This document shows, one piece after another, positions 9,343 to 28,878 of a stretch of 49,203 bases of DNA (the stretch's first letter is position 1; each line of letters opens with the position of its first letter). The DNA is from an uncultured Patescibacteria group bacterium. GTDB taxonomy: Bacteria; Patescibacteriota; Patescibacteriia; Veblenbacterales; UBA10138. The stretch is from contig CALFUV010000027.1 of NCBI GenBank assembly GCA_937929825.1, positions 1-49,203 of the forward strand, given 5' to 3'. The notes under the pieces were generated by a model, which saw only the letters and a program-made list of their open reading frames with translations, did not search any database and had not been told where the DNA came from. The position numbers and the translations under genes were made by a program.

Positions 9343-9861
9343 TTAGTTAATCCTTTTATTTTTTGGATTTTTTAGTTTAGCTGTCTCTTTCTTTTTTAAG
9401 GCATTTATTTCAGCTAATAAAGATTTAAGCTGATTTTCTATACGAGCATAGGTTTCGGTATCATTAAGATTTTCTTTTTCTGCTTCTGCTTGTATTACAT
9501 CTATATCTTTAGATATCTCTTCCACATCTTCGGAAATATCTTCTACATCTTTGGAGATTTCTTCTACGTCTTTAGATATCTCTTCCACATCTTCGGAAAC
9601 CTCATCAATATCTTCAGCTACCTCGGTAATCACTTTGTCTTGTTGATTAATGCTATACTGAATGAATATAGCCAAATATATAGCTTCAAGCGATACAATT
9701 GTAGTCAGCACCAGCATTACTGTGTTGGCATTAAAACCAAGTTCTATTAGAGCCAGCATAACTATAAAAAATACAGTGTGTAGAATAATAGAGCTTGGTG
9801 AGCCAATCCAGACAGTTGCTTTTTGCGCCATTTGATCAAGTAGATTTTTCTTTAGAGGCAT
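9343..9861 (-). CDS. Two-span membrane protein with heptad-repeat coiled coil (DUF1003/iron-permease-like)
   Basis: Residues 18-75 hold two hydrophobic helices. The text around them (WIGSPSSIILHTVFF, then TTIVSLEAIYLAIFIQYSINQQ) recalls the membrane hairpin of DUF1003 and low-affinity iron permease families. From about residue 80 to 125 the protein is built of 7-residue units of the form (E/K)DVEEIS or close variants, encoded by near-identical 21-base repeats. This would make a regular, very acidic coiled coil or helical rod. A further helix and a basic tail follow. It may be a homo-oligomeric membrane scaffold. The family link is tentative. The neighbouring genes do not suggest a pathway. 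Confidence 0.65.
   Translation of the reverse strand: MPLKKNLLDQMAQKATVWIGSPSSIILHTVFFIVMLALIELGFNANTVMLVLTTIVSLEAIYLAIFIQYSINQQDKVITEVAEDIDEVSEDVEEISKDVEEISKDVEDISEDVEEISKDIDVIQAEAEKENLNDTETYARIENQLKSLLAEINALKKKETAKLKNPKNKRIN
9495..9620 (-). repeat. In-frame 21-bp tandem repeats encoding 7-residue units
   Basis: Read on the plus strand, units such as TCTTCCACATCTTCGGAAAT and TCTTCTACATCTTTGGAGAT recur about every 21 bases, roughly six times. The unit length is a multiple of three, so unit gain or loss keeps the frame. Confidence 0.7.
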
Positions 9862-24720: not shown

Positions 24721-26727
24721 TTATATAGTCCTCTTTCTTTTTTTTAAGAAACTATTAAGTTCATTTATTTGATCTCTTAATTGGGCAGCTTTTTCAAATT
24801 CCAAATTTTGAGCGTTTAATTCCATCTGGGCTTCAAGATTTGAGATTATATGTCTAAGTTCGTCTGAAGATATTTTATCAAGTTTTAATTCTTTTAGTAG
24901 CGGCACATTTTCAGATTGATCTTTGGCGCCAGCCAGCCTAGATTCACTAATAGCTTTGGTAATAGTTTTTGGTTTTATACCATGTTCTTTATTATACGCT
25001 TCTTGGAAAATACGGCGACGATTAGTTTCAGAAATTGCCCGTTTCATTGAACCGTTTAGAATATCGGCATACATTATTACATGTCCTTGAGCGTGTCTGG
25101 CTGCTCGACCCATGGTTTGTATAAGAGCCGTCTCACTTCTTAAAAAACCTTCTTTATCAGCATCTAATATAGCTACTAAGCTGACTTCTGGTAAATCTAA
25201 ACCTTCACGCAATAAATTTATACCCACCAGCACATCAACTTTTCCCAAACGCAAATCTCGTAAAATTTCCAAGCGCTCCATAGTATTGATCTCTGAATGG
25301 ATATAATGGACTTTTATACCGTCATCATTTAAATAATCTGCCAAATCTTCAGCCATTCTTTTGGTTAGAGTAGTTACCAGTACACGCTGTTTTTTTTGTA
25401 CACGTTGTCGTATTTGCTGAATTAAATCATCTATCTGGTTTTTGGTTGGTTTTATTTCTATAGTCGGATCTAATAGTCCGGTGGGACGGATAAGTTGTTC
25501 CACAATTTGTTCTGATACCTTTTTTTCATAGTCTCCCGGCGTCGCAGAAACATAGATAAGCTGGTTAACTTTTTGATTGAATTCATCAAAGCTCAAGGGG
25601 CGGTTATCTAAAGCAGCCGGCAACCGGAAACCAAAATCAATCAGCGTTTGCTTACGCGACCGGTCACCAGCCAGCATGCCAATAATTTGTGGAATGGTCA
25701 TGTGTGATTCGTCAATAAATATAAGGGCATTATTTGGCAAATAATCAAGCAGGGTATAAGGTGGTTCGTTAGGCTTTCGGCCATCAAAATAACGCGAATA
25801 ATTCTCAATGCCATTGCAGTAGCCTACAGTTCGCATCATTTCCAAATCATAATTGGTTCGTTCTTTTAAACGTTGGGCCTCTAGTAATTTACCAGCATGT
25901 TTAAGTTCATTAAGTCTGATAATTAAGTCTTTTTCAATTTCTTTTAAAGATTCTTCAAATCTTTCGCTTGGTGCAACATAGTGAGTGGCGGGATAAATAT
26001 CAATCGTTGGTAAGCTAGCTATTTTTTCACCGGTTAAAATTATGCGTTCTTCAATATTTTCTATATTATCTCCATTAAAACTTAAATGAATATATTTATC
26101 TAAGGAATCTGCCGGAAAAATTTCCACTATTTGTCCTTTAACACGGAATGTACCGCGGTAAAAATCAAGGTCGTTACGTTTATATTGTAATTCAGTCAGC
26201 TGGCGTAAAAGTTTTTGTCTGGGGAATAAGTTATTTTTTTTTAACTGGATCCGTACTTTAGCATATTCCGCCGGACTACCCAGACCGTAAATACAGGAAA
26301 CGGAAGCTACAATTATTGTGTCACGTCTTGATAAGATGCTTTGGGTAGCGGCGTGCCTTAATCTGTCGATTTCCTCGTTTAATTGAGTTTCTTTTTCAAT
26401 ATAAGTATCCGATGATGGGATATAAGCCTCCGGCTGATAATAGTCATAATAAGAAACAAAATAGTTCACAGCGTTTTGGGGAAAGAATTGTTGAAATTCA
26501 GCCGCTAATTGCGCTGCTAAGGTTTTATTGTGAGATATTATTAAAGCTGGTCGTTGCGTTTTAAAAATCACATTAGCCATGGTAAAAGTTTTACCTGAAC
26601 CAGTAACGCCAAGCAGTGTTTGATGGCGTAGCCCCTTATTAATACCATCGGTTAATTTGGCAATAGCTTGGGGTTGATCGCCGGTGGGTTTGAATTTAGC
26701 TTTTAGATGGAATTGAGCTTGGTTCAT
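24721..26727 (-). CDS. uvrB: Excinuclease ABC subunit B
   Basis: UvrB is the damage-verifying helicase-like subunit of nucleotide excision repair. The 668-residue length is typical. Walker A GVTGSGKT is at 40-47, the beta-hairpin [20 protein letters not shown] follows at about 92-112, and DESH marks Walker B. The second RecA-like domain holds [31 protein letters not shown] and QTMGRAARH. The C-terminal UVR domain that binds UvrC is present ([24 protein letters not shown]). TATAAA ends 9 bases before the ATG on the minus strand, again suggesting a very short or absent leader. uvrA and uvrC are not in the window. Confidence 0.98.
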
Positions 26728-26742: not shown

Positions 26743-26771
26743 GCAACTGCCTCGCCCCGTAGTGTACGAAT

Positions 26772-26844
26772 GTAAGCGAGTTCTGCTGCTGCCTCGCTTA
26801 GAGTTTTCTGAAAAAGAATCTGCCAGTAATGGCCGATTCTTTTT
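26772..26844. terminator. Two hairpins upstream of uvrB
   Basis: An 8-bp stem TAAGCGAG/CTCGCTTA (26772-26779 with 26792-26799) is followed by a terminator-like stem AAAAAGAATC (26811-26820) with GATTCTTTTT (26835-26844) and an inner GCC/GGC pair. The second lies exactly at the end of the Avd-like pseudogene and would terminate it on the minus strand. Confidence 0.65.
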
Positions 26845-27216
26845 ATTTAGTTAAATATTTAAGCCAACCATTTGTTATTTTGGGTAATTCTTGCAAGTCA
26901 ACTATATTATAAAATAAACTTTTTCGTTAATTATGTTTAATTCTGCCATATTTCTAATAAGATGTTTTATTACTTCAGTAGCCAAGCGTAGTTTGGCAAG
27001 TGTTTGAGGTTTATCAGCTTTATTTTGCAAGGCGGCGTGTGATAACTATTTCAAGCACAATCAGACAGTGTTCTTCTAGCAGGCGATGAATACCAAACCT
27101 ATCTCTTTTTGGTATTTTTTACCCAAATGGTAGATTGTTTGGTAGAATTGAGCTGTCTTATGAACCAAAGGAGCCAAAATTTAGTCAGGGGCTTTAGTGG
27201 AAGTGTTGTTGAGCAT
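26843..27216 (-). pseudogene. Decayed four-helix-bundle protein (Avd-like)
   Basis: No intact frame exists, but joined minus-strand frames spell a four-helix-bundle protein of the S23/Avd type: APLVHKTAQFYQTIYHLGKK, then GIHRLLEEHCLIVLEIVIT, then AKLRLATEVIKHLIRNMAEL, then [19 protein letters not shown] and a stop at 26845-26843. The pieces lie in different frames, with frameshifts near 27100, 27040 and 26920, and an early in-frame TAA is present near 27181. In other genomes this family accompanies diversity-generating retroelement reverse transcriptases, and a dead one lies directly next to it here, divergently oriented. The proposed start at 27216 is uncertain. Confidence 0.72.
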
Positions 27217-28230
27217 AGTTTATTTGAGAAAATTATAGTTTAATAAAATTTGCTGGTGGTTTGGCACTAGTTTAGGCGAGACAAACATGGTAACCTGACG
27301 TGCAGGAATTTGAACTTGAGTTGGAAGATAATTTATGGTAATTACATGATGAATTAATGGCTGGAATTTGGCGACCAGAGTCGTACGTTGCTTTTTTGTC
27401 CGCGATCCCAAATTGCGATATATTCACAAGGCCAGCGTTCGTAACCAAGTATTTCACCAACCCATTTTTCATATTATTTTTTCGTATTATATTATACCAG
27501 ATTTTTAAGAAAGAGTTTATCTTTGATTCCTATACCTGTCGTATTAACAAAGGAATACATCGAGCAGTTAAGAGATTAGCTTTGTTTTTTAGGCAGGTGA
27601 GTCATAATTATCATCAACCAGTGTTTGCTTTAAAGTTTGATGTTAAAAAGTTTTTTGGGGCTGTAGACCAAAAAGTTCTTCTAAAATTATTACATAAAAG
27701 AACAAAAGACCGTAATACCGTTAGGCTTTTAGGCCAGATTATAGAAAGTTTTTATGTTAGTTCAGGCAAAAGATTCCCCTTAGGCAATGTCACCAGCCAA
27801 CTTTTTCCAATATTTACCTGAATAAGCTTAACCAGTTTATGAAACATAAGCTTAAGGTCGGGTATTATTTAAGATATTGCGATGACTTTGTCATACTTAA
27901 TCAAAATGAGAGTTACTTGAAAGAACTAGTACCCAAGATAGCTAATTTTCTAAAAAATAAGTTAAAACTTAGCCCGCACGAGAGAAAGATTTTTATTCGT
28001 AAAGGCAGGCAGGGAGTTGATTTTTTAGGTTATGTAACATTGCCTCATTATTGCGTACTACGGACTAAGATCAAGCGCAGGCTATTCAAGAAACTTTTAA
28101 TAAAACATAATTAAGTTGTGGCTGGAGTTTTGGACCAAGAAAATTTCAACTAGTCAGCCCAGTCTTATTTAAGTATCTCAAAAAATTGCAGTGGTTATAA
28201 TCTGGCAGTAAAAGTACAAAAATTTATGTA
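27211..28230 (+). pseudogene. Decayed reverse transcriptase (DGR-like)
   Basis: Three frames together spell an RT. The N-terminal part (NLLVVWH, stop, FRRDKHG; then DVQEFELELEDNLW, stop, LHDELMAGIWRPESYVAF) contains several nonsense codons. PKLRYIHKASVRNQV sits in another frame at about 27410-27450. The palm follows in the open stretch ending at 27821: FIFDSYTCRINKGIHRAVKRL, FALKFDVKKFFGAVD and LGNVTSQLF. A one-base loss near 27805 shifts frame. The catalytic YCDD (27875-27886) and RQGVDFLGY lie in the 27839-28114 frame, and a C-terminal remnant (QSYLSI..NCSGYNLAVKVQKFM) runs to about 28229. The motif order resembles DGR/group II-type RTs. No variable-protein or template repeat was found nearby. 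Confidence 0.8.
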
Positions 28231-28273
28231 GTAAAATAAATGGAGTATAAGTTTAATTAAGTCTATCAATGCT

Positions 28274-28308: not shown

Positions 28309-28878
28309 ATGATTACTCAAATAAAAGGCCAAGTGTTATTAGTTACCGAAAAGTCAGTTGTGGTAAATATTGGGGCTATTGGTTATGAGGTTTTTATTAC
28401 CCGTGATTTAGTGTCTAAATTGAAACCGGGGCAAGAAATTACTCTATTTACGTATTTTAATGTGCGTGAGGATGCTCATGAACTTTATGGTTTTGCTACT
28501 CAGGCTGATTTGGCATTTTTTAAACTTTTATTAACCGTTTCTGGTATTGGTCCTAAATCAGCTCTTAATATCATAGATACAGCTAAACCAGATGATATTC
28601 GTCAGGCTATAACACATGAAGATGTAACAACCCTCCATCGTATTCACGGTTTGGGTAAAAAAACTGCCGAAAGATTAGTTACAGAATTAAAAGATAAACT
28701 AGAGTTAGCAGGCACAGCAGCGGTTACTAGTAGTGATGAAGCAGCTTTATTGGAAGCCATAGTGGGGCTTGGGTATTCGTTAGCCGAGGCTCGGCAAGCC
28801 GTTAAGGAAATAAAAGGGCAGGGAGATAGTTTATCAGCTAAAATTAAGCTCGCCTTACAGTACTTGGGGCGGAAGTAA
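28309..28878 (+). CDS. ruvA: Holliday junction DNA helicase subunit RuvA
   Basis: RuvA binds the four-way junction and loads RuvB. The 189-residue protein has its three usual domains. The OB-fold (1-65) contains MITQIKGQVLLVTEKSVVVNIGAIGYEVFI. The twin helix-hairpin-helix domain (66-140) contains LLTVSGIGPKSALNIID and LHRIHGLGKKTAERLVTELKDKL. The C-terminal RuvB-contact domain (145-189) contains EAIVGLGYSLAEARQAVKEIKG. The acidic pin (HEDVTT region) is present. It is separated from ruvB by about 12 kb. Its promoter predicts leaderless mRNA. Confidence 0.97.
   Translation: MITQIKGQVLLVTEKSVVVNIGAIGYEVFITRDLVSKLKPGQEITLFTYFNVREDAHELYGFATQADLAFFKLLLTVSGIGPKSALNIIDTAKPDDIRQAITHEDVTTLHRIHGLGKKTAERLVTELKDKLELAGTAAVTSSDEAALLEAIVGLGYSLAEARQAVKEIKGQGDSLSAKIKLALQYLGRK

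What the first reader, a model, noticed from the sequence alone, without database searches (positions are those of the whole stretch)
26843..28230. Back-to-back remnants of an Avd-like protein and a DGR-like reverse transcriptase
Both genes carry several frameshifts and stops, yet nearly every motif remains readable, including YCDD and LGNVTSQLF of the RT. The two are divergent, while avd and RT are normally codirectional. Loss looks recent, and the locus lies between uvrB and ruvA. If a functional paralogue exists elsewhere, this is a dead copy.
Basis: partly seen in the sequence, partly recalled or inferred. Interest (0 to 1): 0.55.

Follow-up and report, generated by a model that had tools for sequence, protein, structure and literature searches.

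The report
Dead copy of a switchable mutation machine
The window holds the decayed remains of a bacterial gene pair that normally helps rewrite a target protein, and most of its living relatives in other small uncultured bacteria carry a slippery DNA repeat that probably turns this mutation machine on and off.

Summary
Between uvrB and ruvA lie a broken bAvd gene (27216..26843, minus) and a broken reverse transcriptase (RT) of the diversity-generating retroelement (DGR) type (about 27193..28231, plus). No template or variable repeat was found in the 49 kb and no other RT in the genome; 7 of 7 family members have no convincing RT or avd match at this site. It is a dead, target-less DGR core.

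The back-to-back layout is not odd: 227 of 240 related loci are divergent, none codirectional.

The unexpected result is in those relatives. 196 of 240 carry a simple repeat (mostly poly-G or GA/CT) across the avd/RT start region (176) or in one RT loop (20), never both. With a junction repeat, avd has an in-frame ATG in 64 of 172 divergent loci, against 51 of 55 without one. 15 of 20 loop-repeat RTs are split at that loop (sampling favoured splits). None of 63 codirectional viral DGRs has such a repeat there. I infer phase-variable DGRs; length change within a strain could not be tested. The window RT groups with junction-repeat relatives and keeps at most a 4-base stub.

The parts
26843..27216 (-). 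decayed bAvd gene (ATG at 27216..27214; three frame changes, stop at 27183)
   Evidence: tblastn E 1.5e-13 to relatives' avd; path and stops
27193..28231 (+). decayed DGR-type reverse transcriptase (six in-frame stops, four frame changes; start codon not identifiable, 5' limit approximate)
   Evidence: tblastn E 1.7e-42; RVT_1 E 2e-7; lesions
27188..27191 (+). GGGG at the position of the poly-G tract of relatives (e.g. G8 in L100); possible stub of a lost tract
   Evidence: sequence comparison, placed by eye; no G7+, C7+ or (GA/CT)5+ run anywhere in the 49 kb
26812..26843 (-). terminator-like hairpin just after avd, with a T-run on either strand
   Evidence: -14.4 kcal/mol, z -5.7
26790..28270 (.). 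extra segment compared with the 204-bp uvrB-ruvA spacer of the same-genus genome G001 (ends placed by eye)
24721..26727 (-). uvrB, intact flank
28309..28878 (+). ruvA, intact flank

Best explanation
The segment is the dead remainder (RT plus avd only) of a DGR of the divergent type found in Patescibacteria. In living relatives the order on one strand is target gene with variable repeat, template repeat, then RT; avd lies between template repeat and RT on the opposite strand, its start close to or overlapping that of the RT. Inferred mechanism there: a simple-sequence repeat, either across the avd/RT start region or in one RT loop, changes length by slippage, puts avd or RT in or out of frame, and so turns retrohoming on or off in individual cells; either gene suffices because both are needed. 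The window copy groups with junction-repeat relatives, sits at a site without a convincing RT or avd in its family, lost or never brought its template and target, has no long repeat, and decayed. Shown here: the homology, the lesions, the layout, the repeats, their positions, mutual exclusion and frame statistics. Inferred: slippage within populations, switching of activity, that the window copy once had a long repeat, and that its loss came before decay.
For: Homology and lesions. No template/variable pair in the window on the same strand or on opposite strands, while the same-strand scan finds adenine-skewed pairs in 25 of 38 relatives' stretches. Site: uvrB-ruvA spacers of 112-1019 bp in 7 of 7 family genomes have no convincing RT or avd match. 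Layout: 227 of 240 divergent. Tract density in 141 living places: 5.49 per kb within 60 bases of the RT model start and 0.92 in the RT loop, against 0.043-0.049 outside the DGR in the same stretches; 84 poly-G, 0 poly-C on the RT strand at the junction. Divergent loci: 172 junction, 18 loop, 37 none, 0 both (Fisher p 7e-13, relatedness ignored); in-frame avd ATG 64 of 172 with a junction tract, 18 of 18 with a loop tract, 33 of 37 with none. Phase 0, 1, 2 of the nearest open ATG against the avd body: 51, 46, 71 of 168. Loop loci: 15 of 20 out of frame, each a two-piece RT broken at the loop. Repeat length and unit differ between close relatives: G15/G7 at 89.9% identity, G11/G9 at 89.4%, G9/G12 at 86.6%, G9/(GA)12 at 84.3%. 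Out-of-frame loci L048, L084, L085 still have template/variable pairs with 13 of 13 and 18 of 18, 21 of 21, and 20 of 21 mismatches at template adenines. 0 of 63 codirectional viral DGRs have such a tract at either place. Window RT groups with five junction-tract RTs, FastTree support 0.906.
Against: No population data: length change within a strain was not seen. No pair above 90% identity carries a tract, except the 23 pairs at 99.95% or more, which can hardly show a length difference and are probably the same assemblies in two collections. 44 of 240 loci have no tract. Tract states cluster on the tree (at least 33 changes, shuffled mean 96; 25 for junction, 8 for loop), so the loci are not independent and the p values are too small. 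Two of the five out-of-frame loop loci that were scanned have no template/variable pair (L082, L083). A -10-like box after the tract is present in 61 of 159 loci, so a promoter role is not established. In 38 of 172 junction loci the RT has no in-frame ATG, GTG or TTG after the tract, so its start is unclear there. A wider scan found a repeat 148 bases before the RT in 1 of 70 codirectional viral loci (L288), and a G-run near the avd start in 2 of 73 viral avd hits, read as a hairpin arm. The stub G4 is placed by eye. Placement of the window RT next to L134 alone has support 0.47.
Confidence: 0.82

Rival explanations
1. The tracts are sites of programmed slippage by RNA polymerase or ribosome, so that a fixed share of full-length Avd or RT is always made, rather than of DNA-level on/off switching.
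For: In the out-of-frame loop loci the RT is broken only at the tract, in two pieces.
Against: Dinucleotide tracts of 7-20 units occur as well as poly-G; phases are close to even (51, 46, 71 of 168) where one fixed offset would be expected; units differ between close relatives.
Confidence: 0.13
2. The junction tract is a promoter, RNA or DNA-structure element; Avd starts downstream of it and the frame data are irrelevant.
For: TANNNT follows the tract in 61 of 159 loci; RT has an in-frame ATG after the tract in 106 of 172.
Against: 108 of 172 avd frames with a junction tract have no in-frame ATG in the test, against 4 of 55 without one; loop tracts lie inside the RT and never coexist with junction tracts.
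Confidence: 0.12
3. The broken frames in the window are sequencing or assembly errors.
For: At least two of the RT frame changes (about 27380 and 27806) fall in T-runs.
Against: Six in-frame stops in the RT are not explained by run-length errors; flanking uvrB and ruvA are intact; template repeat, target and tract are also missing.
Confidence: 0.03
4. The relic comes from another RT class (retron, group II intron).
For: None found beyond the shared RVT_1 domain.
Against: Its relatives carry a bAvd gene and template/variable repeats with adenine-biased mismatches; the RT tree places it inside them.
Confidence: 0.01

Closest known systems
DGR clade 2 of Roux et al. 2021 (PMC8144416; passages read), restricted to Patescibacteria
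   Same: DGR-type RT, host group, cellular; the paper reports that clades 2 and 3 show significantly lower-than-average activity
   Different: Neither frame-shifting repeats nor the divergent avd appear in the passages I saw (avd, accessory, frameshift and orientation: 0 occurrences in the main text). Identity with clade 2 is inferred from host group and RT, not tested against their tree.
Bordetella phage BPP-1 DGR (components described in passages of PMC6642488; gene order and direction recalled)
   Same: RT, Avd, template repeat, variable repeat, adenine mutagenesis; Avd described there as essential for cDNA synthesis
   Different: genes on one strand (recalled); no repeat tract known to me there
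Phase-variable contingency genes and divergent phase-variable promoters (Haemophilus hif, Neisseria; recalled, no call)
   Same: mono- or dinucleotide tract near a start codon or between divergent genes
   Different: none that I know of switches a targeted mutagenesis system

Membership tests
DGR (window copy) | DGR-type RT | tested here: met
   as a broken gene
DGR (window copy) | bAvd accessory gene | tested here: met
   as a broken gene by tblastn; Pfam bAvd itself did not match
DGR (window copy) | template repeat and variable repeat with adenine-biased mismatches | tested here: not met
   none in 49,203 bases, same strand (two weak hits in a tandem repeat at 9494-9614 fail the adenine criterion) or opposite strands; the rest of the genome was not scanned
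DGR (window copy) | target gene | tested here: inconclusive
   no match to G001's target (no positive control) or to FGE-sulfatase (control rang in 4 of 14)
DGR (living relatives) | template/variable repeat pair | tested here: met
   25 of 38 stretches with at least 80% of mismatches at template A, 3 more at 68-71% (L093, L097, L100), 10 without (same-strand pairs only); L050 and L087 among the misses probably hold other RT classes
Phase-variable gene (living relatives) | simple-sequence repeat in or at the start of the coding region | tested here: met
   196 of 240 places
Phase-variable gene (living relatives) | genes found in and out of frame across the tract | tested here: met
   across species, one genome each
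Phase-variable gene (living relatives) | tract length differs between cells of one strain | not testable with these tools
   one genome per species; no reads
Phase-variable gene (living relatives) | length change switches activity | not testable with these tools
   needs experiment

The most novel reading that the evidence does not exclude
Patescibacterial DGRs are phase-variable: a slippery repeat in either avd or the RT, never both, switches targeted protein hypermutation on and off in single cells, so a population holds mutating and non-mutating members at once. This would help explain the lower measured activity of clade 2 DGRs, and makes dead copies such as the window's a likely end state once the switch is lost.
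Probability: 0.72. Interest if true: 0.88.

Novelty: new variant of a known kind. Interest (0 to 1): 0.7.

Why it matters
How cells restrain a system that keeps rewriting one of their own genes is an open question. A heritable, reversible switch placed in either of two required proteins, with different repeat units in different lineages, would be a direct answer for a large group of bacteria. It gives a simple test in long-read metagenomes, and it warns annotators that 'split' RTs of this group may be off-phase rather than dead. The window shows the contrast: the dead copy has many lesions and no repeat, the off-phase copies have one break at the repeat.

Tried and rejected
Rejected: a functional paralogue in the genome; a template or variable repeat in the window (same strand, opposite strands); other copies at the uvrB-ruvA site (7 spacers: best RT match E 0.11; best avd match E 0.002, a 34-residue stretch of L068 with two stops, read as chance; the 1019-bp spacer of G005 holds an unrelated ORF). 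A promoter-spacing role of the tract was considered; the -10-like box is too rare to show it (61 of 159). A first frame count used a faulty pattern that shortened tracts; it was redone and is not used. Two viral avd hits with a G-run near the start (2 of 73) were read: L279 and L284 are near-identical and the run looks like one arm of a G/C hairpin upstream of avd.

Sampling limits: the RT places come from best-scoring rows, which favours unbroken RTs. Nearly all of the 20 regions were chosen because the RT match was partial, and the split loci (L082-L085) were fetched because they were split, which favours split ones. So neither 15 of 20 nor the 5 out, 2 in of the first relatives is an unbiased share. 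Viral loci are the best 80. Places whose RT model starts after column 30 were dropped. Repeat rules differ slightly. Template/variable scans of relatives looked at same-strand pairs only. Fisher values ignore relatedness.

Literature: the 10 searches (listings) gave no report of DGR phase variation that I could see in titles or abstract starts. Two key papers (Paul 2017, Wu 2018; recalled) are not held and were not read, so priority is not settled. Passages of PMC8144416, PMC9948471, PMC9938205, PMC6642488, PMC10053308, PMC4372165 and PMC8867640 were seen without such a report; no paper was read whole.

Full report
What is in the window. The region between uvrB (24721..26727, minus) and ruvA (28309..28878, plus) holds two relics. 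A plus-strand RT relic is recognised by tblastn with relatives' RTs (53 query frames, 102 matches, best E 1.7e-42) and by RVT_1 (E 2e-7 and 0.01 on two pieces). A minus-strand avd relic is recognised by 5 of 48 relatives' avd frames, 4 of them distinct genes (best E 1.5e-13). Reading along the matches, the RT has stops at 27241, 27244, 27268, 27339, 28112 and 28151 and changes frame four times; avd has a stop at 27183 and changes frame three times, with further stops beside the changes. At least two frame changes lie in T-runs; the flanking genes are intact. It is very probably a real pseudogene pair.

The only copy found. G000 has one RT match with RVT_1, two with the sensitive family model (places not listed, I take them as two pieces of this gene), and no bAvd match. 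The 49 kb has no template/variable repeat pair, same strand or opposite strands. No target was found in the genome (without positive control). The genome is 801 kb in 30 contigs, so something may be missing.

The site. uvrB and ruvA are neighbours in 7 of 7 family genomes, with spacers of 204, 112, 1019, 499, 395, 546 and 235 bp. None has a convincing RT or avd match; the best, a 34-residue avd match in L068 at E 0.002, contains two stops. The same-genus genome G001 has a 204-bp spacer that matches both ends of the window's spacer, so about 1.48 kb is extra in the window. G001 has at least two RTs elsewhere (3 matches), one with avd, template repeat and variable repeat (17 of 17 mismatches at template A).

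Layout. In the relatives examined the template repeat lies just past the 3' end of avd, on the RT strand, and the variable repeat some hundreds of bases further. avd runs the other way. In L033 and L036 the start codons abut exactly (RT 1467, avd 1468; RT 1473, avd 1474). Of 240 genome places counted, 227 are divergent, 0 codirectional and 13 have no avd detected; with a wider radius had 1 codirectional of 80. By contrast 63 of 73 viral places are codirectional.

The repeats. While checking relatives I saw that several split RTs break at one place, before the GLPIGNLTSQ motif, each at a simple repeat: G12 in L032, G10 in L082, CT in L083, GA in L084, AG in L085. A scan of 141 living places gave 5.49 tracts per kb within 60 bases of the RT model start (84 poly-G, 8 other, 0 poly-C), 0.92 per kb in the loop, 0.015 and 0 in the rest of the RT, 0.042 in avd, and 0.043-0.049 outside. 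The window has no G7+, C7+ or (GA/CT)5+ run in 49 kb. Junction poly-G runs from 7 to 15, with 9 and 10 commonest (159 loci). In all, 196 of 240 places have a tract: 176 at the junction, 20 in the loop.

Frames. Of 172 divergent loci with a junction tract, 64 have an in-frame ATG before avd; of 37 without any tract 33 do, and of 18 with a loop tract 18 do. The phase (0, 1, 2) of the nearest open ATG is 51, 46 and 71 of 168. Of 20 loop loci 15 are out of frame, each with two RT pieces that meet at the loop (L321 ends at a contig edge); 10 of these 15 came, chosen because partial, and L082-L085 were likewise fetched because split. Junction and loop tracts never occur together: 172, 18, 37 and 0. 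I read this as one switch per system, placed in whichever of the two needed proteins.

Turnover. L138 and L140 are 89.9% identical with G15 and G7; L157 and L400 86.6% with G9 and G12; L157 and L411 84.3% with G9 and (GA)12. The 23 pairs at 99.95% identity or more show no difference, but could hardly do so and are probably the same assemblies in two collections; no other pair above 90% has a tract. In the third set, from genome contigs, 59 of 63 new loci have a junction tract and none a loop tract (6 or more G or 5 or more units, a looser rule); record titles there name Patescibacteria such as Nomurabacteria, Yanofskybacteria and Kaiserbacteria. That the window's organism is one of them is inferred from its kinship. 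On the RT tree the states need at least 33 changes (25 for junction, 8 for loop; shuffled mean 96): changed many times, but also inherited.

Off is not dead. L048, L084 and L085 have an out-of-frame RT but otherwise readable genes and template/variable pairs whose mismatches are at template adenines (13 of 13 and 18 of 18; 21 of 21; 20 of 21). L082 and L083, also out of frame, gave no pair; the L082 contig ends close by. The window differs: many lesions, no repeats, no tract. Its RT groups with five RTs of the junction type, FastTree support 0.906, and GGGG at 27188-27191 stands where L100 has G8 (by eye). A lineage that lost its long tract and then decayed fits, but the order of events is not shown.

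Controls. None of 63 codirectional viral DGRs has a tract at the RT start or in the loop. A wider scan found one repeat 148 bases before the RT in 1 of 70 (L288). Over the whole stretches of 70 codirectional viral loci (361.8 kb) there were 5 tracts, 2 of 73 avd hits having one within 90 bases; those two are near-identical loci with a G/C hairpin upstream of avd. Of 9 divergent viral places 3 have a junction tract.

Function. Avd is described as essential for cDNA synthesis and retrohoming in the paper passages seen (PMC6642488; PMC10053308). Putting either Avd or RT out of frame should therefore stop mutagenesis. Roux et al. report lower-than-average activity for clades 2 and 3, with clade 2 restricted to Patescibacteria; the authors note that purifying selection may mask activity. 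Phase variation is an alternative not mentioned in the passages I saw.

Limits. No reads, no population data, no experiment. Controls outside this lineage are viral contigs only. The place of the RT start is uncertain in part of the junction loci, and a promoter role of the tract is open. Two central papers could not be read.

Noticed in passing
L064, L066, L067, L069 (uvrB-ruvA spacers): A second copy of the 5' end of uvrB (coding [13 protein letters not shown]-like) appears upstream of uvrB in several relatives, next to an element with CGCCCCGTAG...; a similar stretch is in the window at about 26751-26780.
   Followed up: no
L066:482-1500: The uvrB-ruvA spacer of G005 holds an unrelated ORF of about 180 aa, so this spacer differs in content in more than one genome.
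   Followed up: no
L086 and L082, RT loop: In L086 the same RT loop carries roughly 90-100 extra in-frame residues with repeated short motifs (PPLVRG, PLSKGG, SPPFKGG), like an inserted dispersed repeat; L082 has a similar piece near its tract.
   Followed up: no
L061, RT/avd junction: A tetranucleotide repeat (ATTG, 28 bases) takes the place of poly-G at the junction.
   Followed up: partly
L089 and L122: DGRs 84% identical in DNA in genomes of different families (G052, G251), suggesting horizontal transfer of the cassette.
   Followed up: no
L134: The RT nearest to the window's in the tree has a G7 junction run and one in-frame stop in its RT, perhaps another decaying copy.
   Followed up: partly
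window 26812-26843: Strong terminator-like hairpin with T-runs on both strands at the end of the avd relic (z -5.7).
   Followed up: partly
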